A DNA stretch of 64,000 nucleotides from a virus (IMGVR_UViG_3300027782_000066:1-64000); one strand, 5' to 3'; positions 8,101-63,499 are shown, numbered from the stretch's first letter. Program-made: numbers and translations. The notes: generated by a model from the letters alone, not told the origin.

Positions 8101-11100
8101 TAGGAAATTATGAAATATCACAAACACCTACAAGTACTGAAACGTATAGTTATAATTCTTCTTCTGTATCAGTATTCTCAACATCTGATGCTGGGACAAT
8201 TATTACTAGTGGCGATACAGCAAATTATGGTTCTGTAATTATTGGTAGTGATGTTGGATTTGATTATGGTGTAATTATTAACACGAGAACCATTTATCCT
8301 TATGGTTTACTGAATGTAACAGGATCTTCCACAACTAAAAAATCACAAGTTGTTGTTGGATCTGGAATACTATCAACTATCGGAACTGCAACAGTTTCAT
8401 TTGTTGAACCAACACCACAAATTTATGTTTCTGTTGAATATGAATTTAATTCTATTTACGGCAAACCAGCAATTATTGCAACTGGTTCTGCGTCAACAAT
8501 CTTCTATAGAAGACCATCATATATTGGATCTGGATCTCTATTTACAATCAGCGGTTCCAATTCTTCTGTAAGTTTTAATTATGATTTTAATTCAGTTAAT
8601 TACTTTACCACATCTGATTATGGTGATGTAATTACTTCTGGTTCAACCACTAATTATGGATTTATTACTGCTGGTAGTGGTAGTAAAATTGATAGTGGTT
8701 ATATTATTAATACAACTACAGAATTCCCATACAGAGGTTGTGTATCTGTAAGCAGTTCTGCTTCTGTTCAATTCTGTAGAATACCTTCGTATATTGGTTC
8801 TGGTAATCTGTTTGCATTCAGTACGAAAGAGCAAAATAGAATTGATAGTGTTAGAACAGATACATCAACATCTCTGTTTAGTGTTTATGGTTCAGCATTA
8901 ACAAAACAAAGTCCTTCTTTTGTTGGTACTGGATCACTATTTGAAGTTGGGGTAGTTACTAACTCTACAGTATACAGTTATAATTCTTCTTCAATAACAA
9001 TATTCTCTACTGATAATTATGGTTTAGTCAGCAACATTGCTGATATAACTTCAAATTATGGAACAATTTTTGTTGGTAGTGACGTTGGAATTGATTACGG
9101 TTCTGTTATTGACACAAAAAATAATTATCCATATGGCACTCTTTCAGTCAATGGCTCTTACAACATTGCAAAGAGATCATTTAGTCATCAAACCACAGGA
9201 TCTATCAATATTTCTGGTGCTGCAACAACTGCTCAAGCACAACCAGTACCACAAATTTACATCTACAGAGATACCAATCTTTATACTGTAAGTGGCGTCT
9301 CTGCTACAGCATTTGTAAGAATTACTAAAGGTTCTGGAACACTCTTCGCAATTAGTAATTCTTCTGCAGCGATTGCATACAATTATAATACATCTTCAAT
9401 TAAAACATTTGATAGTTCTGATTACGGTGCAATTACTGTTTCTGGAACTACAGTTAATTATGGGAATATTGGAAATCTTGGCGATGGATTCTTTAACTAT
9501 GGTTCAATTGAAGACACAACCACTTATTATCCATTCGGTCTTCTCAAATTCTTTGGTTCTGCTGGAATTGCAAATCTTGCTGGCATTACATATTCTGGTT
9601 CTGGTTCAATCTCCACAATTCGTGGCGGCGCATCATCTGTAGCATTTGTCACAAAACAACCAGAAACTACTGATCTCTTCACAATTAGTGGTTCTATTAC
9701 TGAAAAATATACAAGCAAATACTTTGGTTCTGGATCTATTCTTACAGTTGGTGGTGAAGCAAACTCTGCTTCCTACAGTTATAATATATCGTCGGTAGGA
9801 ATATACACCATTAATGATCTTGGAACCATTACAACTTCTGGTTCTACAGTCAATTATGGTTCTATTACAATTGGCGCTGATATAGTTCTTAACTATGGTT
9901 CAGTTAAAGATATTCAAAACGTATATCCTTACGGATCATTTGTAATTACATCTGTTGCATCAAGTTCAAAAATTGCTGTATACATTGGTTCTGGTGCAAA
10001 AACTTTTATCAAGGGATCTGCAAGTTCTTCAGTATATACTGCCAAGCAACCAGAAACAACAGATCTTTATGCAATCACTGGAACTGCAACAGTTTTTGTA
10101 AGAAATGCATTTACAACAACTGGTTCACTCTTTACAGCGTCTGGTTCTGTAACCTCTGCAGCATACAATTACAATACTTCTTCATTAACAACCCTCTCTA
10201 CAAATGATTTTGGAACCATTACAACTTCTGGTTCTACAGTCAATTATGGTTCTATTGTTGTCGGAAGTGACATTGGAATTGATTATGGTTATGTAATTGA
10301 TAGAACTGACAATTACCCATTCGGTAATCTCAATCTTAACGGTACTCACAAAACTCTCAGAACATTTGGATTTGCTGGTTCTGGTTCTGCAAATATCAGT
10401 GGTGCTGCTGGAGTTATCTCCACACAACCATTTGTAAATATTTACGTTTACCCTGAATATTCTAAAGATATTGATTTAATTATTGAAGATGATTATATCG
10501 TAGAATATGATTATGAAATACTATATGGAAGTAGAAATACTAATCTTTACACTATAAGTGGTACTGCTACAACACCTTCTGCAACAGCAATATACAAATC
10601 TTCTGGTTCATTATTCTCTTTTGGTGGATCAGCATCTTCAATTACTTATGCTTATACACTGAATTCACTTGAATACTTCTCAACACTTGATCTTGGAACG
10701 GTTAACACAACTGGAACAAGTAGTGATTATGGTTCAATAACTGTAGGTCATAATGCAATACTTGATTATGGTTCAGTTTTTGTTACTCAAACCGATTTTC
10801 CATATAAAGGAAAAGTATTTGTTACTGGTGCTGCTACAACTCAAAAATATAATGTTTACACGCAGGTTGGATCTGGCACACTCAATGTTATCAGTGGATT
10901 TGCAAATTCAATCTACGAAGGTAAAAAGAAGCTTGAATCAACAGACCTCTTTAGTATCAGTGGAACTCCATATGTTACTCTCACCAATAAGTTCTTTGGT
11001 TCTGGTTCTCTCTTAACTGCAGAAGGATCTGCAACTACTGGAACATATAATTATAATTCTTCTTCAATTACATCATATTCAACCACTGATTTTGGAAGCA

Positions 11101-14100
11101 TTACAACTTCTGGTTCTACAGTCAATTATGGTTCTATTGTTGTCGGAAGTGACATTGGAATTGATTATGGTTATGTAATTGAGAGAGAATTTAAATATCC
11201 TTATGGTCTTTTTAGAATTAGTGGTAATTATCAGACTTCTAATAGATCCTTTGGACACACAACTGTTGGATCTATTAGTATTTTTGGATCTGGAACAACT
11301 TCACTGGTTGAACCAACACCACAAATTTACACTTACCCAGAATATCCTACAGATGTTGATTTAATTATTGAAGATGATTATATTGTAGAATATGATTATG
11401 AAATATTATATGGATCTACAACTAGAGATACCAATCTTTATGTTGTATCTGGTTCTGCTGCATCACCGAGAACATTCATCTCTCGTGGAATTGGATCGCT
11501 GTTTACATTAAACAGTTCTGCACCTTCTGTAACATACAATTATAGATCTGTTGATATTGAATATACTTCATCAATTAATTACGGAACTGTAGCAACTACT
11601 GTAAATTCTATTGATAATGGATTGATTACAAATTCTGTAGATCTTTATACAGATTATATTTCAATTACGATTGATGAAAAAGCAATCAGATTTGGTTCTA
11701 TCAATACCTCTGGTTCTTCAACCTTACTCAAAACATTTACTCCAGTTGCTTCTGGTTCTCTGTTTGCCTCCAAAGGAGCAGCATTTTCTACATTCGTTCC
11801 AGTTGCTACAGATACAGTACTGTTCACAATTTCTGGTTCTGCAACAAATCTACTTCGTACATTTGGACATACATCATCTGGTTCACTCTTTACGATTGGT
11901 GATCACACAGAAAGAGTTACTTACAATTACCATATTGATTCTGTCAACACATACTCAGCTCTTGATTATCAAACTATTACATCCACTGGAACTTCTGAAG
12001 ATTATGGTTTCATTGCTTCCAGTGCAAATGAAGTTCAACCAGTTGATTGTGGTTATATTAATGTATCAGAATCTGTACGAGCTTATCAAGGATCTATCAG
12101 GATTACTGGTACTACCAAGATCACCTATATTCCTCTTCTCATCTACACCAGTACTGGTGGATTTAAGATTAGTGGTGCTGTCACTACAATTGGTATTCTT
12201 ACTGCAAAAGGAAGACCAGAAAGCACAGATCTTTATAATGTTAGTGGTAGCGCAAACTCCAGTGTCACCAGACCTACATTTACAGAAACAGCTAAGTTCA
12301 GTACATTCTCTGGTGCTGCCGAATCAACTACAAGGATATATAACCAATTTTCAATCAATGAATTTAGTAAGATTGATTATGAATTAATTACTGGATCTGG
12401 TTCAGCAATTGATTATGGATTGATATTTAATAGTTCTAATTCAATTTTCAATTATGGAGATATTTTTAATAGAGAAACTGTTCTTCCATATGGAAATATA
12501 ACAATTGGGGCGGGTGCGGTTGATTATAAATTTGTACCTAACTTTGCATATACTGGAACAGGATCTCTGTTTGCATATACGGGATCTGCAGATGCAAGAT
12601 CTTTCTCTCAAGGTAAGGATGTTGAAACTAGACTCTTTAATGTTTCTGGATCAGCTTTAACAACAGCACCAAAAATTTATACTTCAACTGGATCTCTATT
12701 TAATATTGGATCTAAGATTGAAAGTGCTGCTTATTCATATAATTCTTCATCTATTAATGTATTCTTGTCTAATGACTATGAATATATTACATCTATTGCA
12801 GACACAACAGTTAACTATGGATTAATTTCCGAATCTTCTGTTGGTGATACTGATCTTGGATATATTGTAAATCAGAATACTTTATATCCATATGGAAGAT
12901 TTACTTTTGCTGGTCAATCTTCTATTGAATTCTATAGAAGACCTTCTTACGTTGGATCTGGATCTCTGTTTGCATATACGGGATCTGCAGAAACAAGATC
13001 CTTCTCACAAGGAAAAGATGCTGACACACAACTATTCAATGTTTCTGGATCTGCTAATACACCATTCAGCAGACCTTACATCGCATCAGGTTCGCTGTTT
13101 AATATTGGTTCTAAAGATGAAAGAAGAACTTATGTTTATGATGCATCTTCAATCGTTACATTCTCTGATTCTGATTATGAATACATTAATTCTACAGCAT
13201 CTGTATACAAAAATTATGGATTAGTTTCACAAATTGCTGATGGTGATACTGATCTTGGATATGTTACAAACACTGATATTGCATATCCATTCGGAACATT
13301 AATTCTGTCTGGTTCTTCACTAACGAGTAATCCAAGAATTCATAAGGGTTCTGGATCCCTGTTTGCATTCAGTGGTGTTGCACAATCTTCTGTCAAATCA
13401 ACAACGACAGAAACTTCACTGTTTACAATTTCTGGCACTTCCAGCAATATCAGAAGATTTGGATACGCTGCAGCAGGATCTCTATTTAATATCGGATCTA
13501 AGATTGAAAGAGCGGCATATGCTTATAATCAATCTTCTATTACTGAATACTCAACTAATGATTATGGTTATGTTTCATCTATTGCAGATACAACAACTGA
13601 TTGTGGATTAATTTCCGAATCTTCTGTTGGTGATATTAACTTTGGAGAAATTAGAGTTAATCAAAACCAATATCCATTTGGTTCGTTTGCATTCTACGGT
13701 GCTGCAACTCAGAAATTTACCAGATCTGGTTATATTACAACAGGTTCGCTGTTTGCAATTAGTGGCAGTGCTCAAGCAACAAGCAAATCCTTCCAAACAG
13801 AAACTTCACTGTTTACAATTTCTGGTACTTCCAGAAATATCAAAGCATTTGGTTACTCAGGAACAGGATCTCTGTTTGATATCGGAAGCACAATTGAAAG
13901 TAGAACATATGTCTATAATGAATCATCAATTCTTAATTATAACACACTTAATTATGAAGACATTGGAGAAGGTGCAACTACATTCAATAATTATGGAACT
14001 ATAACTGAAGGATCATCTGAATACTATAATTACGGTTCTGTATCTGACACCGATATTGTATATCCATATGGTGGATTTAATATCTCTGGTGGAACTGAAG

Positions 14101-16891: not shown

Positions 16892-19800
16892 ATGGCAAAG
16901 CAGTTATCGTACTACTACACTTTTACACCAGGAACTAGAACGGTTGTAATTAGTGGTAATGTTAATAGAAAAAGATTGTTATTGATTACCAATACAACAC
17001 GTAATGTAATTGTTTATAATATGACCCAACCATCGTTGGGTGCATCAGCAATTACTTATAATGCCGATAATGATGAAACTACAGTTGTATTAACATATGA
17101 CACTGGAGCTGCTGGGCATCAATCGGGAGATACTCTTCAAATTTTTGCTGAGCAAGATACAGTAAAATTTGAACCCGCTGAGTATCTGATTGATCCTGTT
17201 AGCAAACTGCGTGTATCGCAACCAAACACTCTGATTGATACGGACTTTGAATATGGTCTGCAATCTACTAAATGGGAAACACTTGAAAGATGTAATAACG
17301 TTCCATCATTCTATTCAGTTGCTGGCGATACAAGTATTTCTAATATCACTGCTATTACTACAAATGGTGGTAGAGAAGTTACTGTAACTACTGCAAGTGC
17401 TCATGGTTTAACGACAGGTATTCCTATTGATATTCGTGGTATTACCTCAATTACTGTTGAAGGTACTTGGTTGATCCGTAAAACAACTGACTATCAATTC
17501 ACTTTCGAAACTCCTTTTACTCAGTTAGGAACAACTTCAGTTCCAGTTTCAATCTTAACTCCTTACTCTACTATTATTGTTGGTAGATTTTACGTTAACT
17601 CTGTACTCAACTTAGATAATAGTGTAACAGTTGATGAAGGTCCTATGGTGACCGATGGTGTATCACCTGCCAGCACCATTTCTGTAACTACATCATATGA
17701 TCACGGATTTGTAACTGGTTCGCCATTCTACCTTACAAACTCTCTTGGTAATATTTCCGTAAACTTTGACCCAGCATCTTTCTCGGTCGGCGGTAATATT
17801 GAAGATAGAACTTCATTTGATTATGATACAGGTTTCTTCAACCCTTATGAGCCAATTCATGATGGTTGTACCCTTAAAAAAATTCCCGCAAACTTTATTG
17901 ATAGCAACACTGGTGCTACAATATCAACAACTGGATCTATTGCTACATTTACACTGACCACAACAGGTAACCCAGCACTGCTTGCGGGTCATACAATTAC
18001 TGGTACTGGTGTTGCACCTAACACCATTATTTTAAGTGGTTCTGGTAATACTTGGACAGTTAATATTTCACAAACTACAACTAATGGTCCTCTGACTGCA
18101 TCTTTCCCAACTGCTGGTTTTATCAGAATTGATAATCACGGATTGGAAAATGGAGATCCACTTTGCTACATTGGTACTACTCATACCACTAGTCCACAAA
18201 TTCTTGCGGTATCATCAGGATACTTCCAAATTGCTTCTGGTAATCTTCCATCCTATAATAATGATGGTACTGGCGGTGCAAACGCATCTGGTTGGTTATA
18301 TGCTGCAGTAATTGATGAAGATCATATCAGAGTTGCTACTAACCCCAAAGATGCTTATGATCGTACCAATTTAATTTCATTCTCAAGTTTTGGTGGTAAC
18401 TCCACTGCAACTCTGTTCTTCGGTCTGATGAACAAGAGAGGATATGAAATTCAATCAAGCATTTTTTCTATTCAAACGATTGCATCTTCTTCCGAAGTAA
18501 GAGTAGCATTCCCTGCTGGTACTACTTGCAAGTCTCTGAATATTTACCCAGAGATGCAAATTTCACTGAACAACACTGGCGTATCTTCACTTGATGGTGT
18601 CTATGTTGTCAAAGAGTATCCTGTAACTTCTAATTTTACTAACGATATTTTTAATGAAAATGATACTCACTTTATTATGGAGGGTCCAACAAACTCTTCT
18701 GGCAACTTTGCCACACAAGCATCTAGCGTAACATATTCATTCTCTGGTTCCGCTGCTTCTGTAAATACTATTTTAACTCTCAGTAGCTATGAAAGATCCA
18801 TTCAACCAACTTCAATTACTGCAGTTTCTGGTAGCACTGTAACTATCAATGGTGTTTCTGCTCTTGGTGATGGCACTAATCCTTATCGTGTAGGTTCTGT
18901 TGTAAGATTTACTGCATTAGGTTCATTGACTGGAGTAACTCCTAACTTAGATTATTTCATCTCTGCAGTAGGAGCACTTAGTTCAGGTTCTGTAACTCTT
19001 ACACTTTCTACTACGCATCCAACAATTGCAACAACTGCTGTAACTCTTGGTGGTACAACTAGTGCTGGAACCTTTACTGGTAGTATTACTGGTAATACTT
19101 TAACTGCTGGTTCTGTAACTGGATATGTTCAAGTAGGACAATTAGTTACTGGTACTGGTATTACTGCTGGTACAGTTATTACTGGATTTGGTAGTGGCAC
19201 TGGTGGCGCTGGTACTTATTTTGTAAATACTCAGCAAACAGTAACCAGTACTGCAATGACTGTTTCTGCTAACTTGAAAATTTATACTAATGGTATTCGT
19301 GCTCAAGTACATTCTGGTGCTAATTCTTGGCAGAACCACACAAGAATGTCCATTCATGATTGGTCTTCCTTGACTGGTAAAATGTTTACTCGTGAAGCAA
19401 TTTCCAATACAGGACATTCCATCTATATCAAAAATCACGGTCTTTCAAACGGTCAACCATTGATGTTTGTTGGTGGTGGTAATGGATTTGTAAACTCTGC
19501 TGGTAGTGGTACTGCAGTTGCTTCTAACTATGCTATTTTAAACGAATCTGTAAACCAAGGTTATGTTTATTTCGTTTTAGTAACAGATAGAGATAATTTC
19601 ACACTTTGGACCTCTGAACCAGATGGATTTACTGGTGCATATGGTGGTTGGGTAACTACACCAACTGTTGGTGGAACTATGGGTACATTGAGTGGTAACG
19701 TTGCTCAAGTAGTTTTAAGTCCAACTGGTTCACCTTCAGTTCTTCCAATCACTCAGTCTGGTGGTATCTATCAACTCCATCCTGGTTTTATGGTTGGTAA

Positions 19801-22800
19801 CTTTAGCTATAATACCAACTCCGTTTCTCAAGGTAGAGATCGTGTTATCTCTAATCAAGGAAAACTTCCTGCCTGGTTGACTGATAATGCTCCTGTTATT
19901 GTTAAATCAAACGTAGGTGCTACTGTTCCAACTAACGTTGGATTTACTCCAAATACTTATGCTTGGTATAATAAGTACTTTACAAGAGGTGTTCAAGAAG
20001 CAATTACTAACGTAACTTCGTTTAGTGGTGGTATTAGTGGAACTACTCTTACAGCAACTACAATGACCTATGGCGCTCTGCAAGTAGGTCAAGAAGTAAC
20101 TGGAACTGGTGTAACTGCTGGTACATTCATCACTTCATTTGTCACTGGTACTGGTCAAAATAACGGTGGTACTTATACCGTTAATATTTCACAAACTGTT
20201 GCTGGCGGCACAACTTTAGTTGCATATCAAAAATCAGAAATGGCAACTTCAGGTAAAGGTGAATTTGGTATTTCAATTGTGCAGAATGGTCAACCCATTG
20301 ACTTCGGTGGCAGTCCAACTCCTGGTACTTCAACAGCGACTGCTCCTGCTAAGTTCTTCTGCACAAGAATTGTAGAAAATCTATATTCCAACTCGTTCTT
20401 CCTACCATTCCACGGCGGCACTATTGGACAAAGAACAAATTATGTAACTGGCGCATTTGCTGGATCTACTGATACATCACCTGTTCTCCCAGTAGCAACA
20501 GGATATCCAAAACCAGCATTTGATTATGTAACTGACCGTTATAACATTAGGTGGCCAAGAATCAGTCTGTTTATGTCACAGACAGGTACTGCTGGACAAG
20601 GTACTACAACCTTTACTGGTAACGTTTGGGGTACTGGTAACGTAGCATATTCTTCAATGCCTGTTGCTGCTGGTGGTGCTACTAACGCAATTTCTTCAGG
20701 TTCTGCTGGTGTTCTCGGAACAACCAAGTATAATATGGTTCCAGTAACCAATGATATCTTCAAGATTACTCAAACTGGTACTTCATTCCTACCAACAGGT
20801 CAACCAACAATTCAATTTACAATTAACTCTTCACAATCAATTTCTTATGGTGCGTTCAACAACGCAACTGTAGGTACAAGAGGTACTTCATCTGCTGGTG
20901 GTCCTTTAGGTGTAACAGCGTTTAAGTTTGCTACAACTTCTTCTGCTAAAATTCCTAACTCCAATAGTAACAGAATTATTGTTCCTATTCAGAAAATGTC
21001 ATTCTTAGAGAATGATCTGGTACGTTATGATACAAGTGGTGGTACTGAAATTGCTAGTTCATTTACTGGTATTTCAGGTCTTCAAAATGGACAAGTTTAT
21101 TCCATTAAGAACGTTTCATTAAAAACTCCTATTGCAACTTCATTAAATACAGCAAGAACATTAAGCGCAACTGCAACTGTATTTGATCTTGATACCAGCG
21201 TTACTGAAGTATTTACTGGTTCTATTGCAGGTAATACTTTAACTGTAACTGCAGTAACTACAGGAGTACTTCAAGTTGGTATGGTTATTACTGGTACTGG
21301 TATTACTGCTGGTACTGTTGTAACTGCATATGGTACAGGTCTTGGTGGTGTTGGTACTTATACTGTCAATGGTCAATCACAAACAGTATCTTCCACAACA
21401 ATTCAAGGTATCACGTCAGTTAATATTCTAGCAGGTGATATTCTTCAAATTGGTACTGATGGTATTGAACAAGTTTTCGTACTTCCTCCTGCAACATTTA
21501 CTGCAACAATTTCTGGCACTACTTTAACAGTATCTGCTGTATCTGGAACTCTTGCAGCAAACCAATTAATTACAACTTCTGGACTTACCTCAAATCCATT
21601 ACAAACTGTTGTTGATAATACTACGATTGTAAGTCAGAGTAGTGGTACTCCTGGTGGTGTTGGTGTTTATGTAATCAACAATGCTCAAACAATTTCAACT
21701 GCAACTAATATGACTGCTTCTTCTGGAGGCAATCAAATTACTGTAACCAGAGGTTATGGTGGTACAATTCCCACAATTATTCCAGAAGGAACACCAATTT
21801 ATAAACTCTACGGTTCATTCCAATTGTACTCACAAGTACTTCTGCAACCAAGAGCACTTGGTTTTGGTATTACTCTTGGGCAGATTGATGCTACCAATAT
21901 GATCTTCCACTTTGGTGGTACTGTAGCTTCTTCTGGTACTCCAAGAGCACATAACCTGCGTACTGGAGATCCATTGCTTCTGTCATCTGGTGGTGGTGGT
22001 ATTGTTGATCCATTTACTGGTAATACTATTACTACTGGCATAACAGTTTTTGCTATTGTACTTACTGACTTTGCATTCAAGATTGCTCCTACAAGAGAAG
22101 CAGCATTCTCTGACTTCTCAATGACCATTACAAACGTTGCTACATCATTCACTACAATTGTAGATACAATTCCTCTGAAGTCATATGTAAATATCTCTGA
22201 TGTCACACATAAACTTCTGAACGTTTCTTCTACTGGTTCTATTGACGGTCCTTATAATGCATCTTCCGTAACCACAAGAAAAGTTAATCTGAGACCACAA
22301 ACAAATACATCTCTGACAATTAATGCTAGAGATTTAACATTCAACCCAGCAAAAACTCTTAACCAAAAAACAGGTCAGTTCTTGTATGGCGGTCACGGAT
22401 TTTCAACTGGTTCGAGAGTAATCTACTCTAGAAATAATAATCCATTTGAGATTGGTAGAGAGAGGCAAAAGAATTATCAGATTAATAACGTAACTAGAGT
22501 ACAGCAGGCAACTGCAACTGGTACTCCTGGACTTGCAACTCTGACATTCACTGCACCACACGGTCTGACGATTGGTCAAATTTATCAAGCACAATACATC
22601 AATATTGATGGTACTGGTGCTACAACTGAAACGTTTGATGCTGTAAGTGTTCCTGTATACGTTAGTTCAACAACTCAAGTTCAATACATCAGTCCTATTT
22701 CAAACAGTGTAGTAGGTTCTACAAGTGTAACTGGTACGATGTCTTTGAGAGGAACTAATCATCCTCAGCTTGGTTATAATGCACTTTATGATCTTGATCT

Positions 22801-25800
22801 GACTGCTGCTCCTTCAGGAAACGGCGCAACCGTAACTTATACCTTTGCAAATACATATGAAGAAGCTTTCGCAGTTGGTGATAGTGTAAACGTAACTGGT
22901 GTTCTGGTTGCTGGTAGCACTACTAATGGATACAATGGAACCTTCAAGGTTACTAATTGTACTACTACAACTGTTACTGTAACAAATACAACAACTGGTG
23001 GTTCACCTTCAATTACTGCTACTGGATGTTCTGTAAGAGGTACTTATTATGTAATCAGAGATAGCTTTGATCTGTTCCGTCTTGCAAGAACAAAAGCAAA
23101 TTCTTTTGCTGGTATTGCAATTGCTAACTACTCTACAACTGGTTCTAACCAGATTGTACCAGCACAATTCAATATTCACACAATTCAAAGAACTTCTGGT
23201 GTAACTACAGTTACAACTGGTCAGCAGAATGGTGGGGTACTTGGTCACAACTTAGTAATTGGTATGGTTTATAATGCATCATTCATTGATATCAACTGCG
23301 GTGGTGCTTATATTTCTGGTTCTACTGTAGTTCCTTATAACTCAATGAATGCAAGTAATATACAAATTACTGTAACTACAACTACTCAGTTTACATATTC
23401 CAATCCTGGTCCTGATATTCCATCAACAAACATTGGTACTACCAATACACCAATTCTTGGTACAATGACCATTTCTGGTGTAAATGAAACTGGACATAAA
23501 CTGATTTCATTCCAAGTAGCTGGTGAAACGATGGGTAATGGTACTGCTACCATTAACTCTAAGGATGCTCTCCTGACTGATCCAACTAGTACATCAAACA
23601 ATATTAGACCAGCGACTGAAAGAATTGTTCTCACTTCACACGGGTTCCAAACTGGTGATCGTGTTATCTATCGCGTATGGGCGAATGGTACTCCAATTCT
23701 TGGTCTGGCTAATGGTGGTGAATATTATATCAATAACACAGTCAACCAAATTTCATCAGGTCCTTTGGTTCGTGGTGGTACTGAAAGTGGTCAAACTGCT
23801 AACCAGTTCTCACTTCACAACTCTTGGGTGGGTGCTTATACAAACACTGACCTAGTTGATATTCTTGGTGGTGGTACTGGTAACGTACACCAATTCAAGA
23901 TTTCTAACCCAACATTGAAAGGAACAACATATAAAGGCGAGTGGTCTTCAGGAGATAACTATTTCTACGGCGATATTGTTCTTTTCCGTAGTCAGTATTT
24001 TATGTCTAATAATGGTGTAGTTACTACTGCTGGTACTTTTGCTAATAACAACCAACAGCCTGTAAGAAATGATGGTTTATTTAATAATAACTGGCAAGAA
24101 GTTCCAAACCTTCCCGCATACTCTTCAAGATTCCTTGCTCAGTATAAAGGTGGTGATATACTGAAACTTAGTAATACAGTTCCTTCAAGAACCGTACCAT
24201 TTGCATTCAGTGCTGTATCAACAACAACTGGTATCTTTAGTGTAAGTAGTCACAGATTAACAACTGGTGATGCTGTAATCTATCGTGTAAATGCTGCTGG
24301 TGGTAACAATAGTAATGCATCAACACTTTCTAACATTTATGGTCAAGTTAATGGTACTGGTGATTTCCCGATGAAACCACAGGCAGGAAATAATTCTGCC
24401 ACAAATAATGATAAACTAATTGCTGATTATGTTTACTATGTAAACGTACTTGATACTTCAAACTTTACTCTGCATACATCACTATCTGGTGCTATTGCTG
24501 GTCAATCTTACACTTCAACAGCACTTAATACAATCTCTGGTGCTGGTTTCACATTCTCTAGTGTTTCTGGTTCTAGAACTGCTGCTGGTCTTGTAAGTAT
24601 CACAACTGGTGCTCACGGTTTACAAATAGGTGCTACTTACCTTGCTTCTATCAACGTTGATACTGCTGGTTTTGAAAACTATGATGCTTATAATGTAACG
24701 ATCAACGTACCTAGCTCTACGGTAATTACATATCAAACAAACATTCTGAGTGCAAACTCAGGTACAATCACTGGTACATTCCGTCTGATTGATCAAACTG
24801 ATCTGGTTGTTCCTGGAGCACCGACTAATACTGTAGCATATAATGGTCTTGGTTCTTATCATAGACTTGAAAAACTTGAAGGGCAAGTTTACGAACCAAT
24901 TATTATTGCGGTTAATAGTGATACTGAAATGGTTATCACTGATCCATACCCATCCAGACAGTTCACCTTCAACCCTCAAGGTACATTTAATTCACCATCA
25001 GGTACTCAGTTACCAAATGTTAACTTAACGAATGGTGATTTTTATATTCCATCTCACGGAATTATGACTGGTACTAAAATGTACTATTCTCCTGGTTTAA
25101 ATATTGGTATCAGACTTGGTAATATAACTGCTGGTGGTACTTATTATGCAATTAAAATTAATGATGATGTAATTCGCCTTGCTACATCACTTTCTGATGC
25201 TCTCTTAATGGTTCCAGTTATCCCAACTAACACTGGCGCTGGTTTCTATCACTATATCGTAGTTGCAACTCCTGCTGGTTCTACAAATATTCGTTATAAT
25301 ACAAGTGGAGCTCTAATTGGAGATACTCAGGGTTCTGGTACTCAGTTTGCGGGTATCGCATCTTCAAACTATTATAGTAGTCAAACTTCTGCTAATATCA
25401 GTCCTGGTGTTCTTCAAGGTTTGAATTTCCTTTATCCTACCAGTGTTTATGCAAGAGCAAATTGCATCAATCTTCACAGACCATTTGATGGTGGTGTTGA
25501 ACTTCAAAATGCTAAGAACCCACAGACACAAGTTATCCGTCAGACACGTAAATACTTCCGTTATCAGTCTGGTAAAGGTCTGCAATATTCTAGTGGTATT
25601 AACTTCAGTCCATCAATTGATGTTTCATACATCACACACGATGGAACTACATATGCAACTCTTGTTAGCAGAAAAGCTCATAACTTCTCCGCTGGTAATA
25701 GAATTAAAGTTGAAGGTGTGGCAGTAACAAGTGGTGTTGCAACTCCTTATACAAATCCAGCAAACGGTCTATACTTTACCGTATTTGATACTCCTGATGA

Positions 25801-27094
25801 ATTCACACTTCGTTATGCTACTAATGGTGTGCCAGCTGATTTAGCACCATCAGGATATCCAGATCTCTTCCCATATGAGTGGACTGATGCTTCTGTTCGC
25901 GCTGGTATGTATGACGACCAAAATGGTATGTTCTTCGAATTTGATGGTCAAAATCTTTATTGTGTAAGAAGATCTTCTACCGCTCAACTTGCTGGATTTG
26001 TATCAACAACATTTAATAGCAATGTTATTACTGGTGTTGATACTAGATTTACTAAGCAATTAGTTGCTGGTGATTATATTGTGGTTCGTGGACAAAGTTA
26101 TAAAGTAACTTCTGTAACTTCAAATACTACCATTAATATTTCTCCTGCATATAGAGGTGCTGCTGGTACAAGATTGATTTTAACTAAAACTGATGAATTG
26201 AGAATTCCACAATCTTCTTGGAATATTGATAAGTGTGATGGAACTGGAATTAGTGGATTTAGATTGAACATCAATAGAATGCAAATGGCATATATGGATT
26301 ACTCCTGGTATGGTGCTGGTAGAGTTCGCTTTGGTTTCAAAGATACTCACGGTAAAGTATTCTATGTTCACGAATTTGTTCACAACAACAAAAAAACTGA
26401 AGCATACTTACGTTCTGGTAACCTCCCCGCACGTTATGAAATTCTGAATGGTAACAACCCAACATATTCACCATCACTCTACCATTGGGGTGCATCGGTA
26501 ATTATGGATGGTGGATTTGAGGATGACAAAGCGTATCTGTTTACTGCTGCTTCAGGTTCTGGTGGTTCTGATATTATTACAGTTCCTTCAGCACTATTTG
26601 GTACTCAGGTTCCAATCATCTCAATGCGTCTGGCACCTTCTGTAGATAGTTCTTTGGTTGGCGCTCTTGGTTCACGCGACCTGATCAACAGAATGACACT
26701 GAAGCCTAACTCTTGCGGTATCGTTATTACTAACACTAACAACAGAGCCTGCTCTGTTCGCCTGATTCTGAACGGTAACCTCTCACAGTCTGCATACTTC
26801 ACGAACTACGGTTCACCTTCACTGACCCAAGTAATTAAGCACACTGGTGCTATCAACGATACCATCTCTGGCGGTACAGTTGTATTTGAATTCCGTGCTG
26901 CTTCTGGTGCATCGGTAACTCAAGATCTGGGTCAACTGATTGAACTTGGTAACTCAATTATGGGTGGTGATTATGTATATCCTAACGGTCCTGATATTCT
27001 GTCTATGGCGGTCGTACCAACAGATCCTACTGCTGGTACTGCTGGCAATACATTCGTAACTGCACGTCTTACTTGGACTGAATCACAAGCGTGA
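16892..27094 (+). CDS. Giant beta-module virion protein (3400 residues), upstream of gp13
   Basis: A single 10.2-kb frame with AGGA at 16877-16880 upstream. The N-terminal domain (about residues 1-140) includes a [14 protein letters not shown] string I recall from large cyanophage structural proteins. The middle is a string of beta modules. About a dozen have the pattern H-G-L/F-x-x-G-d-x-V (for example near residues 170, 415 and 840), as in phage FCCH-like repeats. At least four have I-T-G-T-G-I/V-x-A-G-T-x-I followed by G-T-Y-x-V-N and Q-T-V. A conserved-looking C-terminal region (about 2900-3400) has [11 protein letters not shown] and V-Y-P-N-G-P-D. In T4 the genes before gp13 encode baseplate wedge, short-fibre and whisker proteins, so a baseplate or fibre role is inferred. 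Confidence 0.8.
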
Positions 27095-58123: not shown

Positions 58124-58528
58124 ATGACTATTGATTTGGATAAGTATGTTCAATTTGTTGGTGCTGTTACCAGTCCAGCATCCCGTAATACCACAGAGTT
58201 TGTTGATCGCATTCTTGAATTGAAAGATCAAGGTGCTGACATTCAACGTCTGCTTACTGCTGCTTGTGGTATTACTGCTGAGGGCGGAGAGTTTACTGAG
58301 ATTGTAAAGAAGATTGCATTTCAAGGAAAACCTTATAATGAAGATAATGTCTATCATATGAAGCGGGAACTTGGAGATATTATGTGGTACATTGCTCAAG
58401 CGTGTATTGCTCTTGATATGTCATTTGAAGAGATTGCTCAGATGAACTTTGATAAGTTGAATGCACGATACCCAGAAGGAACGTTCAGTATTGAACGAAG
58501 TGAGAACCGAGTAACTAATGATATCTAA
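58124..58528 (+). CDS. mazG: MazG-like nucleotide pyrophosphohydrolase
   Basis: A 134-residue all-alpha MazG-type protein of the cyanophage kind. Metal-binding E-x-x-E is at E53-G-G-E56 and E-x-x-D at E82-L-G-D85, within A-C-G-I-T-A-E-G-G-E-F and K-R-E-L-G-D-I-M-W-Y. The family removes pyrophosphate from nucleoside triphosphates. Cyanophage MazG was earlier proposed to lower ppGpp, but biochemical work on a cyanophage enzyme pointed instead to dGTP/dCTP-type substrates, as I recall. It lies three bases after gp41, at the end of the early operon and before a terminator. Confidence 0.93.
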   Translation: MTIDLDKYVQFVGAVTSPASRNTTEFVDRILELKDQGADIQRLLTAACGITAEGGEFTEIVKKIAFQGKPYNEDNVYHMKRELGDIMWYIAQACIALDMSFEEIAQMNFDKLNARYPEGTFSIERSENRVTNDI

Positions 58529-58556: not shown

Positions 58557-59903
58557 ATGGCTAGATCTGGAAAGGAGGCGTGGGAAAAATATTTTAAAGG
58601 ACAAGAAGTACAAACTACTGTTAAGGCAAATAGCAAATCCAGTGCTAGTACTAATAACCTTAATGTAGGTAGTTCTAAAACTAAATTAGAACATGGAACA
58701 CCGATCACTGTTTTTGGTGGAGATGAATATAAAGCACAATTAGGTGTGCGATTAAAGGATGGTACATATGGTTTCTTACCTCTTACCAGTATTCAGAAAC
58801 CTACAGAGCAAAAAGTAAGATATAATATTGAGGCATATAAGTTAATTCAACTTGGTAAAAAAGAAAAACGAATGTACAATGGAGTTGAGTATGACTTCAG
58901 AGTATTTAAAACTTCGGAAGAATTAGCAAAATCAATTCTTCACGGACTAGAAAATGAACCATCGGTTCCTGAATATCTTGTTGAGCAAATGTTTGAATTT
59001 TTTTATGAGAACGTTGAAGGTGATGTCTCTAAGATAAATTGGAATGCTAATGTTTTAGGTGGTGATAAAACTGAAATTGGAAAATATATTGGTGAGTTAC
59101 TTCCTGGATTTTTAATTTTATCTAAGAAATTTTCTGCCTTTAGTCAGCAAGATTTTATTTACACTGGTTCTCTTCCAGAATATATTGTACCAGAAGATCC
59201 ATCATTCTCTGGTGTTGATAGTATGTTTGATTATAGAGAAGTTCAAAAAGATGGAGGTATTTCTGCCATCTCAAGTAAGTATGGTGTTGGTGCTAAAGCA
59301 TCATTCTGGTCTAATATTATGCCAGAAGTACTTAAGTATCCAGATAAATTTTCTAAAATGTCTAGAGATTCTACAATAAAAAGATTAATTTCTATTGCTA
59401 GTAACTATAATAATGTAGAAAGATCTGGTAGAAGTATTGTATTTCAATATGGAATGGAATATTTTCTGGGAGATTTAGTTCACAATCCAGAAGATATTTA
59501 CAAAAAGATAGCAGCAAATACTACAAAGGTAGATCCTGATGTTGCATCAGTTTCTCGTACAGCAAAAAATAAATTAAGTGTATTAAATAGTAGTGTATAT
59601 AAAGAAACTTCTGCACCAGTTTTACTTCGTAATTTAAAAGGTGGTAAGTCACTGACATCTATATTTTCTCGTGCAATTGCTGATGAATTGAATGCTGATA
59701 ATAAAACTATTGCAGCAATTAAAGAACTGGTATCTGGTAAAAATTTCTTTCAACTCAATTTAGATGAAAGTAAATTTAAGAGAGGACAAATTTATTTTAA
59801 TGTTAAAAAATCATCTGCTGTACAAATTACATTCACTGGAACAAAAGCAGCGACTAATGATATTGCAGCAAAACAAGGAACAGTAAATTACTTATTAAAT
59901 TAA
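58557..59903 (+). CDS. Unknown 448-residue protein, first of a coupled accessory set
   Basis: I do not recognise this family. It begins K-E-A-W-E-K-Y-F-K-G after a basic start, then has a Ser/Asn-rich linker (about residues 20-45). A small beta domain follows with Y-K-A-Q-L-G-V-R-L-K-D-G-T-Y-G-F-L-P-L (about 58-76). The central part has I-G-E-L-L-P-G-F (about 178) and then G-V-D-S-M-F-D-Y plus I-S-A-I-S-S-K-Y-G-V-G-A-K-A-S (about 220-252). That spacing of D and S-x-K is reminiscent of nuclease folds of the PD-(D/E)xK kind, but the last acidic position is not convincing. It ends with a small beta segment. Its stop overlaps the ATG of 59903. Its SD is buried in the upstream terminator. Confidence 0.7.
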   Translation: MARSGKEAWEKYFKGQEVQTTVKANSKSSASTNNLNVGSSKTKLEHGTPITVFGGDEYKAQLGVRLKDGTYGFLPLTSIQKPTEQKVRYNIEAYKLIQLGKKEKRMYNGVEYDFRVFKTSEELAKSILHGLENEPSVPEYLVEQMFEFFYENVEGDVSKINWNANVLGGDKTEIGKYIGELLPGFLILSKKFSAFSQQDFIYTGSLPEYIVPEDPSFSGVDSMFDYREVQKDGGISAISSKYGVGAKASFWSNIMPEVLKYPDKFSKMSRDSTIKRLISIASNYNNVERSGRSIVFQYGMEYFLGDLVHNPEDIYKKIAANTTKVDPDVASVSRTAKNKLSVLNSSVYKETSAPVLLRNLKGGKSLTSIFSRAIADELNADNKTIAAIKELVSGKNFFQLNLDESKFKRGQIYFNVKKSSAVQITFTGTKAATNDIAAKQGTVNYLLN

Positions 59904-61111
59904 TGGCAAACATAGTAAAACTAAAACATCTTGAACATTTAGAAGATGAAGTTCTGAATTATGGTTCGGAAGGATGTTTTGCTATTGTTAGATTTCTTAC
60001 CGAACTCAAAGATATGATTGGTAAGAAATCAACAGGAGGATTTCTACAGACAAAATGGGATGGAGCACCTTCAGTAGTTTGTGGTATGGACCCAATGACT
60101 GGTGGATTTTTTGTAGGAACTAAATCAGTATTCAATAAGAAAGATCCAAAGATTTGCTACACAGAGGGTGACATTGACGGTATGTATGAGGGTGAGTTAA
60201 ATAAAAAACTTAAAGATTGTTTAAACTATTTCTCTCAACTTGGTATCAGTGGTGTCATTCAAGGGGACCTTCTATACACTAGTGATAAAAAAACCCAAAG
60301 AATAAATGGTGAAGAACTAATTATATTCAGACCTAATACAATTACTTATGCTATCCCAACTGATCATCCGATTGGTCAAAAAGTCAATAGATCTAAAATT
60401 GGAGTGGTTTTTCATACTCATTATGCTGGCGGCCCTGATCTTGCAGATATGTCTGCAAGACCTCGCGTGGATATTTCAAAGTTTAGTTCTGTTGATGATG
60501 TTGCCGTTATCTCTAATGATACGCAGGTACAGAAAGTATCGTTTACGCAATCAGAAGAACAAACATTCGACAGATACATTCAACGAATAAACAGAATGTG
60601 TGAGATTTCTGCATCATTCCACGACTATATTGTAGAAAATTCTGGTACTACTGGTGATGCAAAATTTTTTGTTGGGTCTTATATCAAACCATTTTTCAAT
60701 AATGAAATTAAGGAAGCAAGAACTATTACTAATGTTGATGCTACTCTAAAATCGTTTGCTGAATTTTATAAAGCAAAGATGGATAAAGAAATCTCCTCAG
60801 TTAAAACTGCAGCAGCACAGACAAAGAAGCGTGAATTTTTCTACACTGGTGTTAAATACTTGGAAGATAATGTAAAAGAATTCAAAGCATTTGTGGCACT
60901 TTATAAAACTATTCAGGAAGCAAAGTTATTCATCATCTCAAAATTGGACTCACTTGAACAGTTCAGAACTTTTGTTGAGATTGACGGTGGGTATAAAGTT
61001 ACTACTCCCGAAGGTTATGTTCTCCACCAAGATGGAGATATGGTGAAATTAGTTAATCGTATTGAGTTCAGTAAAAACAATTTCACTATAGAAAAAAACT
61101 GGAAAAAATGA
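59903..61111 (+). CDS. Ligase-like KWDG protein (putative covalent nucleotidyltransferase)
   Basis: A 402-residue protein. Q-T-K-W-D-G-A-P-S (residues 49-57) fits motif I (K-x-D-G) of DNA/RNA ligases and capping enzymes, with K51 as the possible AMP-accepting lysine. Downstream order is compatible with that fold: F-F-V-G-T-K-S-V-F (about 69-77), G-V-I-Q-G-D-L-L-Y-T (about 117-126, motif III-like), I-I-F-R-P-N-T-I-T-Y, and K-I-G-V-V-F-H-T-H-Y (about 166-175, motif IV-like). The C-terminal half is helical and unlike a standard OB domain. The stop overlaps the ATG of the NMNAT-like gene. Ligase-type fold is inference from motif order. Confidence 0.65.
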   Translation: MANIVKLKHLEHLEDEVLNYGSEGCFAIVRFLTELKDMIGKKSTGGFLQTKWDGAPSVVCGMDPMTGGFFVGTKSVFNKKDPKICYTEGDIDGMYEGELNKKLKDCLNYFSQLGISGVIQGDLLYTSDKKTQRINGEELIIFRPNTITYAIPTDHPIGQKVNRSKIGVVFHTHYAGGPDLADMSARPRVDISKFSSVDDVAVISNDTQVQKVSFTQSEEQTFDRYIQRINRMCEISASFHDYIVENSGTTGDAKFFVGSYIKPFFNNEIKEARTITNVDATLKSFAEFYKAKMDKEISSVKTAAAQTKKREFFYTGVKYLEDNVKEFKAFVALYKTIQEAKLFIISKLDSLEQFRTFVEIDGGYKVTTPEGYVLHQDGDMVKLVNRIEFSKNNFTIEKNWKK

Positions 61112-61680
61112 GCCTCATAGAATATAAAAGTTGTTACTTCACATTCGGTAGATTTCAACCCTGCACCACAGGTCATGCAGATAACTTTGCGAACCTGAAA
61201 AAGATTGCTGGTAGTAATGATTATCGTATTTACATCAGTCAGTCAGTAGATGCTAAAGGTAATAATCCTTTACCTCCCGATGTTAAACTTAGCTATATGA
61301 ATAAGTCATTACCAGAACATCGTGGTAAAATATTCAGTAGTGCTAGTACCAATTCTCATGTGAGTATCCTACAGGAACTACAATCTCTTGGGTATGATAA
61401 TGCATATTTTGTAGTTGGATCTGATAGAGTTGCAAAATTTCAATATATAAAACAATATAATGGTAAGGACTTTGTATTCAATGAACTTGATATAATTTCC
61501 TCTGGTGATCGTGATGCTGATGGTGATGGTTTTGCTATATCTGGAACTAAAATGAGAAGAGCAGCATTTGCTGGTGACTTCAAAACCTTCAGAACTGGTA
61601 TTCCTACAGCACTAACTGATCCTGACTGCAAGAAACTTATGAAAGAAATTGCATCTAAATTGCCCACAAACTTTAAATAA
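61108..61680 (+). CDS. NMNAT/cytidylyltransferase-like nucleotidyltransferase
   Basis: A 190-residue protein with the HIGH-type fold. The start G-R-F-Q-P-C-T-T-G-H (residues 14-23) is the G-x-F-x-P-x-x-x-G-H phosphate-binding motif, and I-S-G-T-K-M-R-R (144-151) is the I-S-x-T-x-x-R motif. V-V-G-S-D-R-V (about 102-108) sits between them. The family includes NMN adenylyltransferase (NAD synthesis), pantetheine-phosphate and glycerol-phosphate transferases. The T-G-H and F-x-P context fits phage NMNAT-like proteins best. It overlaps the ligase-like gene by four bases and would be co-translated with it. Substrate not determinable from sequence. Confidence 0.8.
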   Translation: MSLIEYKSCYFTFGRFQPCTTGHADNFANLKKIAGSNDYRIYISQSVDAKGNNPLPPDVKLSYMNKSLPEHRGKIFSSASTNSHVSILQELQSLGYDNAYFVVGSDRVAKFQYIKQYNGKDFVFNELDIISSGDRDADGDGFAISGTKMRRAAFAGDFKTFRTGIPTALTDPDCKKLMKEIASKLPTNFK

Positions 61681-61688
61681 AATTCCCA

Positions 61689-62420
61689 ATGAAAAAATTA
61701 ACATTTGACGACGCTAAAAATAATAAAATATTTACTATCATTGAAAAGAATGGTGATAGTAAATATATTAATTTGATTGAAGATGCATATGAGAAAGCAA
61801 AAAAATATGAAAGTAAACTTCCAGAATGGGTTATTACTATGGAAGGAATGTCTGGCGTTCAGTACAGACACTTCATCAATAACTTATTTGAGAACATTGA
61901 AACCTCTGACTACCTTGAAATAGGATGCTGGAAGGGGTCTACAACCTGCTCTGCCACTTATAAAAATTCAGTTAAGGCATATTGTATTGATAACTGGAGA
62001 GAGTTTGGTGGACCCAAAAATGAATTCTTAAGTAACATTCAGAGATGTATGAATGAAAGTGACGGTAAATGTGATATTCAATTGGTTGAAAATGATTTCA
62101 GAAGATTGGAATATAATAACATCGGTAAGTATAATGTGTATATGTTTGATGGTCCACATTCATTAGATGATCAGAGAGATGCATTAATATTTGCTAAGGA
62201 TGCACTTGAGGATGAATTTATTTTTATTTGTGATGACTGGAATTGGGGTCATGTAAGAGAAGGTACTATACAAGGATTAGAACAATCTAATATGGAAGTA
62301 ATTTATTCAATTGATCTTAGAACTACTCCTGACAATACTACTTGCACTCACGAGAATGGATATGAAAGAAGTGACTGGCACAACGGCTATTATATTTCAG
62401 TAGTTAAAAAAATTAAATAA
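61689..62420 (+). CDS. Class I SAM-dependent methyltransferase-like protein
   Basis: A 243-residue protein. Motif I is S-D-Y-L-E-I-G-C-W-K-G-S-T-T (residues 75-88), with the acidic end of beta2 in A-Y-C-I-D-N-W (about 98-104). The MTase-like F-D-G-P-H-S-L-D-D-Q-R-D-A-L (about 156-169) follows, then F-I-F-I-C-D-D-W-N-W-G-H-V-R-E-G-T (about 178-194). This layout fits the methyltransferase 24-like group that acts on small or sugar substrates. TTTAAATA (61672-61679), a late-like variant, ends 9 bases before the ATG. The acceptor is unknown; with the upstream glycosyltransferase it could belong to glycan or fibre modification. Confidence 0.8.
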   Translation: MKKLTFDDAKNNKIFTIIEKNGDSKYINLIEDAYEKAKKYESKLPEWVITMEGMSGVQYRHFINNLFENIETSDYLEIGCWKGSTTCSATYKNSVKAYCIDNWREFGGPKNEFLSNIQRCMNESDGKCDIQLVENDFRRLEYNNIGKYNVYMFDGPHSLDDQRDALIFAKDALEDEFIFICDDWNWGHVREGTIQGLEQSNMEVIYSIDLRTTPDNTTCTHENGYERSDWHNGYYISVVKKIK

Positions 62421-62446: not shown

Positions 62447-63499
62447 ATGTATAATTTTTCTGAATACTCCACAAAAATTTATATGCGTGAGAAGTATTAC
62501 AACGGTGAAGTGTTCCCAGAAGGAATGAAAGTAAGAAATAATAGCGATAGAGTAGGTGTTATAATTCGTCGTGGACCTAATTATGTTATCTGCTTGGGAG
62601 AAGATCAGAAAACTTTTAGGAGTTGGATTTCTGATATTAGTGAGGTCCACGAACTAGGTACTGATGAAACGAGAGAATATCTACAATCAATAACTCCCAA
62701 TCAAAAAGTTGAGAGGTATGGCAAAACCAAGACCCCTAAGCATACTACTATGATAAATAATAAAAAAGGTACTTACAAGGAAATGTTTAACGATAGTTTT
62801 TCTAAATCTTTGATTGAAAGATCTGCCAATGGAATTGGCGGCACAGATTGTTTTGGGGAGGTTGAGAATAAGCAGGAAGTTACAACCGAGTATAATAATT
62901 CCTTGATGCAAAGTGCAGTAGAGCATATTACGTCAGGTAAATTGTTTGAGGCTAAGAATAAAAAAGGTAAAGAGCAAGGTGCTGATGGCAAAGCTTGCTG
63001 GGATGGTTATAAGTATGCTGGTACTGAGAACGGTAAAGATAAGTGTGTCAAGGTAGAAGGGTATGGTACTAAGAAAAAAACTGAAGCATTAGATCCTGTC
63101 GGCAAAGAAGATGGTGATGTTGATAATGACGGTGATACTGATAACTCTGATAAGTATCTGAAGAAGCGTAGGGCAGCAATCTCTAAATCAGTTAAGAAAG
63201 AAAATTTTTCTGATTGGAGATCTGAACTTAATGAAAAATGTAATTATACTGAAGAAGGTGTGGAATGCCCTGAGCACGGCAAGGATGCCTGCTCAACAGT
63301 TAAGGAAGCAGATTGTGGTTGTGGCACTCCTTCAAAGATGAAGAAGGAAGAAGCTTTAACTAAAGGTGAAACTGACAAGAAAGAAAAAATTGTTCGTTCA
63401 ATGAAAAAAAATCTTAAGGATTTTAAATCACGCTATGGAGAGCGTGGTAAATCAGTTATGTACGCTACTGCCACGAAAATGGCAAAGAATGATAAATAA
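62447..63499 (+). CDS. Mosaic metal-binding phage protein with tag domains
   Basis: A 350-residue protein made of separable blocks. The N-terminal part (about 1-75) is an SH3/KOW-like beta domain: V-F-P-E-G-M-K-V, D-R-V-G-V-I-I-R-R-G-P-N-Y-V. Then follow a polar linker, A-C-W-D-G-Y-K-Y-A-G-T-E-N-G-K-D-K-C-V-K (about 183-200), and D-G-D-V-D-N-D-G-D-T-D-N-S-D-K-Y-L (about 222-238), an EF-hand/dockerin-like calcium loop. Next comes a Cys/His cluster C-N-Y-T-E-E-G-V-E-C-P-E-H-G-K-D-A-C (about 265-282) with D-C-G-C-G-T-P. The end is F-K-S-R-Y-G-E-R-G-K-S-V-M-Y-A-T-A-T-K-M-A-K. Several blocks recur in unrelated cyanophage proteins, as I recall. Function unknown. Confidence 0.75.
   Translation: MYNFSEYSTKIYMREKYYNGEVFPEGMKVRNNSDRVGVIIRRGPNYVICLGEDQKTFRSWISDISEVHELGTDETREYLQSITPNQKVERYGKTKTPKHTTMINNKKGTYKEMFNDSFSKSLIERSANGIGGTDCFGEVENKQEVTTEYNNSLMQSAVEHITSGKLFEAKNKKGKEQGADGKACWDGYKYAGTENGKDKCVKVEGYGTKKKTEALDPVGKEDGDVDNDGDTDNSDKYLKKRRAAISKSVKKENFSDWRSELNEKCNYTEEGVECPEHGKDACSTVKEADCGCGTPSKMKKEEALTKGETDKKEKIVRSMKKNLKDFKSRYGERGKSVMYATATKMAKNDK
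63491..63498 (+). promoter_or_regulatory. Late promoter variant GATAAATA
   Basis: One mismatch from the late motif, overlapping the preceding stop and 27 bases before ATG 63526. Confidence 0.4.

What the first reader, a model, noticed from the sequence alone, without database searches (positions are those of the whole stretch)
58557..61680. Coupled three-gene module: unknown, ligase-like KWDG protein, NMNAT-like enzyme
The genes overlap by stop/start codons (59903, 61108), so they are made together. The middle one has a KWDG motif and an order of motifs compatible with covalent nucleotidyl transfer. The last has intact G-x-F-x-P/TGH and ISxTxxR motifs for making a dinucleotide such as NAD. 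The first has a possible nuclease-like patch. Together they could form a nucleic-acid end repair, tagging or anti-defence system, for instance an NAD-using ligase supplied by its own NMNAT.
Basis: inference. Interest (0 to 1): 0.7.

Follow-up and report, generated by a model that had tools for sequence, protein, structure and literature searches.

The report
Phage nuclease, ligase-like and NMNAT-like trio
Three overlapping phage genes encode a fast-changing DNA-cutting-type enzyme, an enzyme built like an RNA ligase, and a relative of the enzymes that make NAD; this trio is kept together in hundreds of T4-like phages of cyanobacteria and other water bacteria, yet nobody has tested what it does.

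Summary
The genes overlap (TAATG at 59901-59905, ATGA at 61108-61111) and travel together. The middle protein is Pfam DUF6267. Its K51, D122, E370 and K382 are invariant in 64 aligned relatives, and its predicted fold (pLDDT 92) aligns best with RNA ligases. The last protein is a HIGH-superfamily nucleotidyltransferase of the NMNAT type. It accompanies DUF6267 in 106 of 109 loci with full-length DUF6267 and is fused to it in six. It has an SH3-like barrel and a restriction-endonuclease-type domain: an MspI-like D-x17-SxK site and a weak structural match to MspI and HinP1I. Its counterparts in other phages sit at the same place but belong to about a dozen families that BLAST cannot join, nearly all with D...SxK; one family matches Type II restriction and nicking enzymes. 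They diverge far faster than their neighbours. The trio therefore looks like a nuclease-ligase-nucleotidyltransferase module for cutting and repairing nucleic acid during infection. NAD use, substrates and biological role are untested. I tested whether the nuclease explains missing palindromes in these genomes and rejected it.

The parts
58557..59903 (+). Gene X, 448 aa: N-terminal SH3-like barrel (residues about 15-84) plus restriction-endonuclease-type domain (residues about 121-447)
   Evidence: AlphaFold2 model pLDDT 80.6; VIA-align: SH3-like folds at 2-87, MspI 1sa3 Z 5.9 over 198 residues, HinP1I 2fkc Z 4.9 over 179; no Pfam/PHROG match
59217..59279 (+). Putative catalytic core of X: D221 ... 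S239-x-K241 (D-x17-SxK)
   Evidence: Invariant in 15 family members; same spacing as MspI D-x17-NxK (MspI residues from memory)
59901..59905 (+). TAATG: X stop overlaps DUF6267 start
59903..61111 (+). DUF6267 protein, 402 aa, RNA-ligase-like covalent nucleotidyltransferase fold
   Evidence: PF19782 E 3e-124, phrog_455; AlphaFold2 pLDDT 92, pTM 0.86; VIA-align Naegleria RNA ligase Z 8.2, TbREL1 Z 8.2, T4 Rnl2 Z 7.4
60053..60064 (+). Motif I, K51-W-D-G (predicted AMP-accepting lysine)
   Evidence: K51, D53, G54 in 63/63
60266..60268 (+). Motif III residue D122 (QGD)
   Evidence: 64/64
60548..60949 (+). All-helical insertion, residues 216-349, between motifs IIIa and IV
   Evidence: secondary structure of the model
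61010..61060 (+). Motif IV E370-G-Y-V and motif V K382-L-V-N-R
   Evidence: E370 and K382 64/64; the alignment end 396 to 339 in Naegleria RNA ligase puts them within one residue of E312 and K326 (inference from the ranges)
61108..61111 (+). ATGA: DUF6267 stop overlaps NMNAT-like start
61108..61680 (+). NMNAT-like HIGH-superfamily nucleotidyltransferase, 190 aa
   Evidence: PF01467 23.3 bits, cut-off 21; phrog_3041 E 4e-61; profile hits NadR, NadD and NadM structures at E 0.001-0.006
61147..61176 (+). GRFQPCTTGH, (H/T)xGH nucleotide-binding motif
   Evidence: G14, R15, G22, H23 invariant in 30 sequences
61537..61557 (+). ISGTKMR, second nucleotidyltransferase signature
   Evidence: S145 and R150 invariant
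58124..58528 (+). MazG pyrophosphohydrolase, usual upstream neighbour but not part of the core (absent beside the module in Melnitz-3)
   Evidence: PF03819; Melnitz-3 gene order

Best explanation
The three genes form one phage module for cutting and repairing nucleic acid. Supported here: DUF6267 is a ligase-fold covalent nucleotidyltransferase with all catalytic motifs; the third gene is an NMNAT-type nucleotidyltransferase tied to it by adjacency and fusion; the first gene belongs to a set of very diverse, restriction-endonuclease-like proteins kept at the same coupled position. Inferred: K51 accepts AMP (from ATP, less likely NAD) and the enzyme activates and joins 5'-phosphate ends, more probably of RNA than DNA. 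Inferred: X cuts host or rival DNA, and its rapid change reflects a conflict over what it cuts or over who inhibits it. Inferred: the NMNAT-like enzyme makes a dinucleotide (NAD or similar), either restoring NAD drained by host defence or serving end chemistry. Confidence in the pieces: ligase fold 0.9, X is a PD-(D/E)xK-type nuclease 0.8, the three work together 0.8, cut-and-repair role 0.45.
For: Ligase fold; motif invariance. Coupling: NMNAT-like gene within the locus in 106/109 loci with full-length DUF6267, fused in 6, and only 1/7 of the short ones; phrog_455 spans both. X abuts DUF6267 upstream in 101/114 loci; where DUF6267-NMNAT is fused (S-PM2, L031, L032, L092) a D...SxK protein of a related family follows immediately downstream (hhalign joins the window X family to cluster c5 at 94% and c5 to the S-PM2 downstream family at 97%). 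Nuclease: MspI/HinP1I matches, motif enrichment, PADLOC Type II REase hits for another X family, E 7e-13 to 5e-8. Distant relatives add kinases (an AAA_33 kinase in L127; adenylate-kinase-like in L112 and L123) and Pol-beta nucleotidyltransferase domains fused to the NMNAT-like domain; Pol-beta enzymes working with RNA ligases, and Rnl2 ligases fused to HNH nucleases, are described in other phages (PMC7824862).
Against: Foldseek gave no match with E below 0.001 for either model, so the fold calls rest on VIA-align Z of about 8 (ligase) and 5-6 (nuclease) plus motifs. hhalign of DUF6267 with T4 Rnl2 is not significant. X is not sequence-related across most phages, Caulobacter phage Cr30 has X without DUF6267 beside it, and jumbo phages have the NMNAT-like gene without a detected DUF6267. 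Most loci lack kinase, phosphatase or Pol-beta partners.
Confidence: 0.5

Rival explanations
1. RNA repair only: DUF6267 seals tRNAs cut by host defence nucleases, the NMNAT-like enzyme replaces NAD consumed by defence, and X is itself an RNA-end or structure-specific processing nuclease rather than a weapon.
For: Best structural neighbours are RNA ligases, ahead of DNA ligases. Distant relatives carry kinase and Pol-beta domains, typical of RNA repair sets.
Against: X resembles DNA restriction enzymes and its extreme variability does not fit a housekeeping repair nuclease; no tRNA genes in the window.
Confidence: 0.25
2. X is a homing-type selfish nuclease lodged at this locus; it cuts other phages that carry a different X allele and spreads by repair. 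DUF6267 and the NMNAT-like gene are bystanders.
For: Very divergent X alleles sit between conserved flanking genes, and swap between close relatives: S-RIM44 isolates carry unrelated X.
Against: X keeps company with DUF6267-NMNAT even when it lies on the other side of it, is almost always present, and overlaps DUF6267 by start/stop codons.
Confidence: 0.12
3. X is a self-sparing restriction enzyme: the phage protects itself by losing the recognition site, which would explain CCGG 0 of 39 expected in the window's record.
For: CCGG and other palindromes are completely missing in many of these phages, and a podovirus said to infect the same host as one of them does not show it.
Against: Missing sites do not follow X: S-RIM44 isolates with unrelated X miss the same sites; X proteins 89% or 78% identical occur in genomes with different missing sites.
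Confidence: 0.05
4. Metabolic cluster: MazG, the NMNAT-like enzyme and DUF6267 adjust nucleotide or NAD pools; DUF6267 transfers AMP to a small molecule or protein, and X is an unrelated gene in the operon.
For: MazG is the usual neighbour; that a ligase fold alone does not fix the substrate is general knowledge.
Against: MazG is not always there; X is coupled more tightly than MazG; kinase and Pol-beta neighbours point to nucleic acid ends.
Confidence: 0.15

Closest known systems
ATP-dependent RNA ligases (Naegleria Rnl, TbREL1, T4 Rnl2)
   Same: Nucleotidyltransferase core, motif order I-III-IIIa-IV-V, EGYV motif IV
   Different: Has a helical insertion 216-349 between motifs IIIa and IV, an invariant N-terminal HLEHLED signature, and no domain after motif V; no significant profile similarity
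Type II restriction endonucleases MspI / HinP1I and the PADLOC REase_II families PDLC03459, PDLC03395, PDLC03396
   Same: D-x-SxK type site, fold similarity over about 200 residues for the window protein; sequence match for another X family
   Different: No methyltransferase partner within the trio, SH3-like N-terminal barrel, extreme diversity, coupled to a ligase-like gene
NMN adenylyltransferases (NadM, NadR, NadD)
   Same: GRFxPxTxGH and ISxTKxR motifs; profile hits at E 0.001-0.006
   Different: Phage-specific family (phrog_3041/395) fused or coupled to DUF6267; substrate untested
Phage RNA repair sets: RNA ligase, Pol-beta RlaP, kinase; Rnl2 fused to HNH nuclease (PMC7824862)
   Same: Ligase-fold enzyme with kinase and Pol-beta neighbours in some relatives; a nuclease paired with a ligase
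   Different: Different nuclease fold, a new ligase-like family, and an NMNAT-like enzyme as the constant partner

Membership tests
Covalent nucleotidyltransferase (ligase/capping) superfamily | Invariant motif I lysine, KxDG | tested here: met
   K51, D53, G54 in 63/63
Covalent nucleotidyltransferase (ligase/capping) superfamily | Motifs III, IV and V in order with acidic, Glu and Lys residues | tested here: met
   D122, E370, K382 in 64/64; register within one residue of Naegleria E312/K326
Covalent nucleotidyltransferase (ligase/capping) superfamily | Nucleotidyltransferase fold | tested here: met
   Model pLDDT 92; RNA ligases lead the list at Z 8.2 and DNA ligases follow; Foldseek alone did not reach significance
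Covalent nucleotidyltransferase (ligase/capping) superfamily | Lysyl-AMP formation | not testable with these tools
   needs an assay
Rnl2 RNA ligases | C-terminal domain of about 100 residues after motif V | tested here: not met
   Only about 16 residues follow motif V in DUF6267; T4 RnlB, fetched here, is 334 aa with about 107 after its motif V
NAD-dependent DNA ligase (LigA) | N-terminal Ia domain and OB, zinc, HhH and BRCT domains | tested here: not met
   About 45 residues before motif I, mostly one helix, and nothing after motif V
PD-(D/E)xK restriction-type nucleases | Asp ... (D/E/S/N/Q)xK catalytic pair on the core strands | tested here: met
   D221-x17-SxK invariant in the window family; pattern enriched across X families
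PD-(D/E)xK restriction-type nucleases | Fold of the window protein | tested here: inconclusive
   MspI Z 5.9 and HinP1I Z 4.9, below the level at which a match is safe; a sister family matches REases by sequence
PD-(D/E)xK restriction-type nucleases | DNA cleavage | not testable with these tools
   needs an assay
NMNAT / HIGH nucleotidyltransferases | (H/T)xGH and ISxTxxR motifs, family profile | tested here: met
   PF01467 above cut-off; motifs conserved
NMNAT / HIGH nucleotidyltransferases | Specificity for NMN or NaMN | not testable with these tools
   closest profile matches are NadR, NadD, NadM, which is suggestive only

The most novel reading that the evidence does not exclude
Most T4-like phages of cyanobacteria and other aquatic bacteria carry a nuclease-ligase weapon: a rapidly diversifying restriction-type nuclease attacks host or rival DNA while a dedicated ligase-fold enzyme, with its own NMNAT-like partner, repairs or marks the phage's own nucleic acid, a system with no described counterpart.
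Probability: 0.22. Interest if true: 0.85.

Novelty: new variant of a known kind. Interest (0 to 1): 0.62.

Why it matters
DUF6267 is carried by at least 469 sequenced phages with no assigned function and no paper in the library that mentions it. Assigning it a ligase fold, and its neighbour a restriction-type nuclease that changes faster than the genes around it, gives abundant environmental phages a testable conflict or repair system and could supply new ligases and sequence-specific nucleases.

Tried and rejected
Self-protection by loss of the recognition site: missing palindromes were computed in 38 phage genomes or segments; they do not follow X identity, so rejected as a general explanation. 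Direct sequence proof of ligase homology: PDB profile search and hhalign against T4 Rnl2 gave nothing significant. Foldseek against PDB gave no E below 0.001 for either model. Family libraries: ten X representatives have no Pfam match, are absent from or 'unknown function' in PHROGs, and the window X has no PADLOC match. MazG as a core member: rejected because Melnitz-3 lacks it beside the module. A cellular origin of DUF6267 was looked for: 38 loci in 84,980 genomes, mostly marine metagenome bins, so probably phage contigs. Literature: no paper on DUF6267, none joining cyanophage, cytidyltransferase and RNA ligase.

Full report
What is there. The window's record is a 79-kb virus fragment. In the replication block of a T4-like phage (DNA polymerase, UvsX, gp41 helicase, MazG) lie three overlapping genes: X (58557-59903), DUF6267 (59903-61111) and an NMNAT-like gene (61108-61680). 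The overlaps are TAATG and ATGA. The same order occurs in Syn1, P-HM1, S-WAM2 and other cyanophages. There the NMNAT-like gene is annotated as 'cytitidyltransferase', and the other two as hypothetical.

Middle gene. It is Pfam DUF6267 (E 3e-124). Relatives were collected from IMG/VR and aligned. K51, D53, G54, D122, H171, E370 and K382 are invariant in every sequence that covers them. The model is confident (pLDDT 92, pTM 0.86). The second-look aligner puts RNA ligases at the head of its list: Naegleria RNA ligase Z 8.2 over 178 residues, T. brucei REL1 Z 8.2 over 190, T4 Rnl2 Z 7.4, then DNA ligases. The last aligned residues (396 to 339 in the Naegleria enzyme) place E370 and K382 within one residue of E312 and K326, which PDB titles show as mutated residues of that enzyme; that these are motifs IV and V is from general knowledge. 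Foldseek alone did not find this, and hhalign with T4 Rnl2 is not significant, so the case rests on fold, motif order and invariance. A helical insertion (216-349) and an invariant N-terminal HLEHLED make it a family of its own. It is not an Rnl2 (no C-terminal domain) and not a LigA-type NAD ligase (no flanking domains).

Last gene. It matches PF01467 above cut-off. Its family profile finds NadR, NadD and NadM structures at E 0.001-0.006, and both signature motifs are conserved. Of 109 loci with full-length DUF6267 and room downstream, 106 have it; six loci in all fuse the two in one frame. Only one of seven loci scored as short DUF6267 has it, and that one (S-PM2) is a full-length protein split in the database record. 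PHROG family 455 also contains both domains.

First gene. No library recognises it. Its model (pLDDT 80.6) has an SH3-like barrel, and a second part that matches the restriction enzymes MspI (Z 5.9, 198 residues) and HinP1I (Z 4.9, 179 residues). D221-x17-S239-x-K241 is invariant in the family and has the spacing I recall for MspI (D99-x17-N117-x-K119). In other phages the gene in this place is nearly always present (101/114 loci) but falls into about a dozen families, nearly all with D-hydrophobic ... (S/E)xK. A strict form of the pattern occurs in 30% of X and 0.9% of control ORFs; the window X itself has a longer spacing and does not match that strict form. In a separate set of loci from bacterial assemblies a looser form occurs in 16/23 against 15/173. 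One family (S-8S56, S-CAM3, S-CAM9 and others) matches Type II restriction and nicking enzymes (E 7e-13 to 5e-8 for the best hit). Profile comparison joins the window family to a second, and that one to a third, which includes the protein that lies downstream instead of upstream in S-PM2-like phages. So the nuclease-like partner follows DUF6267-NMNAT even when it changes sides.

Variability. Between loci whose DUF6267 is 90-98% identical, X has a median identity of 42% while the NMNAT-like protein has 93% and MazG 77%; below 80% DUF6267 identity X is mostly unrelated. Two S-RIM44 isolates carry unrelated X genes. This is the mark of a gene in conflict or of an exchangeable module.

Context in distant relatives. 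Some loci have a P-loop kinase between DUF6267 and the NMNAT-like domain, and a Pol-beta nucleotidyltransferase fused to it (L112, L118, L123, L127). Iyer and colleagues describe Pol-beta enzymes (RlaP) that work with phage RNA ligases, and Rnl2 ligases fused to HNH nucleases that may attack rival DNA while the ligase repairs RNA (PMC7824862). The module here has the same logic with other parts.

A test that failed. The MspI likeness and the total absence of CCGG in the window's record (0 against 39 expected) suggested that X spares its own genome by site loss. Across 38 phage genomes or segments, CCGG and other palindromes are indeed often missing completely, and the podovirus P-SSP7 (host MED4, from memory) does not show it. 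But missing sites do not follow X: unrelated X with the same missing sites, and near-identical X with different ones. The loss remains unexplained and is listed separately.

Conclusion. Supported: a co-inherited trio of a restriction-type nuclease candidate, a ligase-fold nucleotidyltransferase and an NMNAT-type enzyme. Inferred: a cut-and-repair role in infection. Unknown: substrates, the AMP donor, and targets.

Noticed in passing
window 1-64000 plus the rest of its 79-kb record; 38 related genomes or segments: CCGG is completely absent (0 of 39 expected) and GGTACC too (0 of 21). CCGG is zero in most related phages but normal in ACG-2014j, S-CAM4, ACG-2014e/i and L079. Others lose GTAC, GCGC, CATG, CGCG, CTNAG, TTSAA or GGWCC almost or quite completely. 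P-HM1 lacks CCGG and GCGC while podovirus P-SSP7, said to infect the same host, does not.
   Followed up: partly
window 62447-63499: An N-terminal 'RGPNYV' domain matches the C-terminal part of fused cytidyltransferases (phrog_395); further on lie ACWDGYKYAGTENGKDKC and RYGERGKSVMYATATKMAKN stretches, the first of which has look-alikes in other phage proteins seen here.
   Followed up: no
window 5178-16613 and 16892-27094: Two giant ORFs of 3811 and 3400 amino acids; not examined.
   Followed up: no
L112, L118, L123, L127: In distant relatives the NMNAT-like domain is fused to a Pol-beta nucleotidyltransferase (GSILTKRYRNDADLDINV) and, in L127, also to a P-loop kinase.
   Followed up: partly
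S-PM2 record NC_006820, L002 7986-9765: DUF6267 is split between two annotated genes in this record but matches as one piece in the other S-PM2 record (LN828717), which suggests a sequencing or annotation frame error.
   Followed up: no
window 61689-62420: Methyltransf_24 family protein directly after the trio.
   Followed up: no
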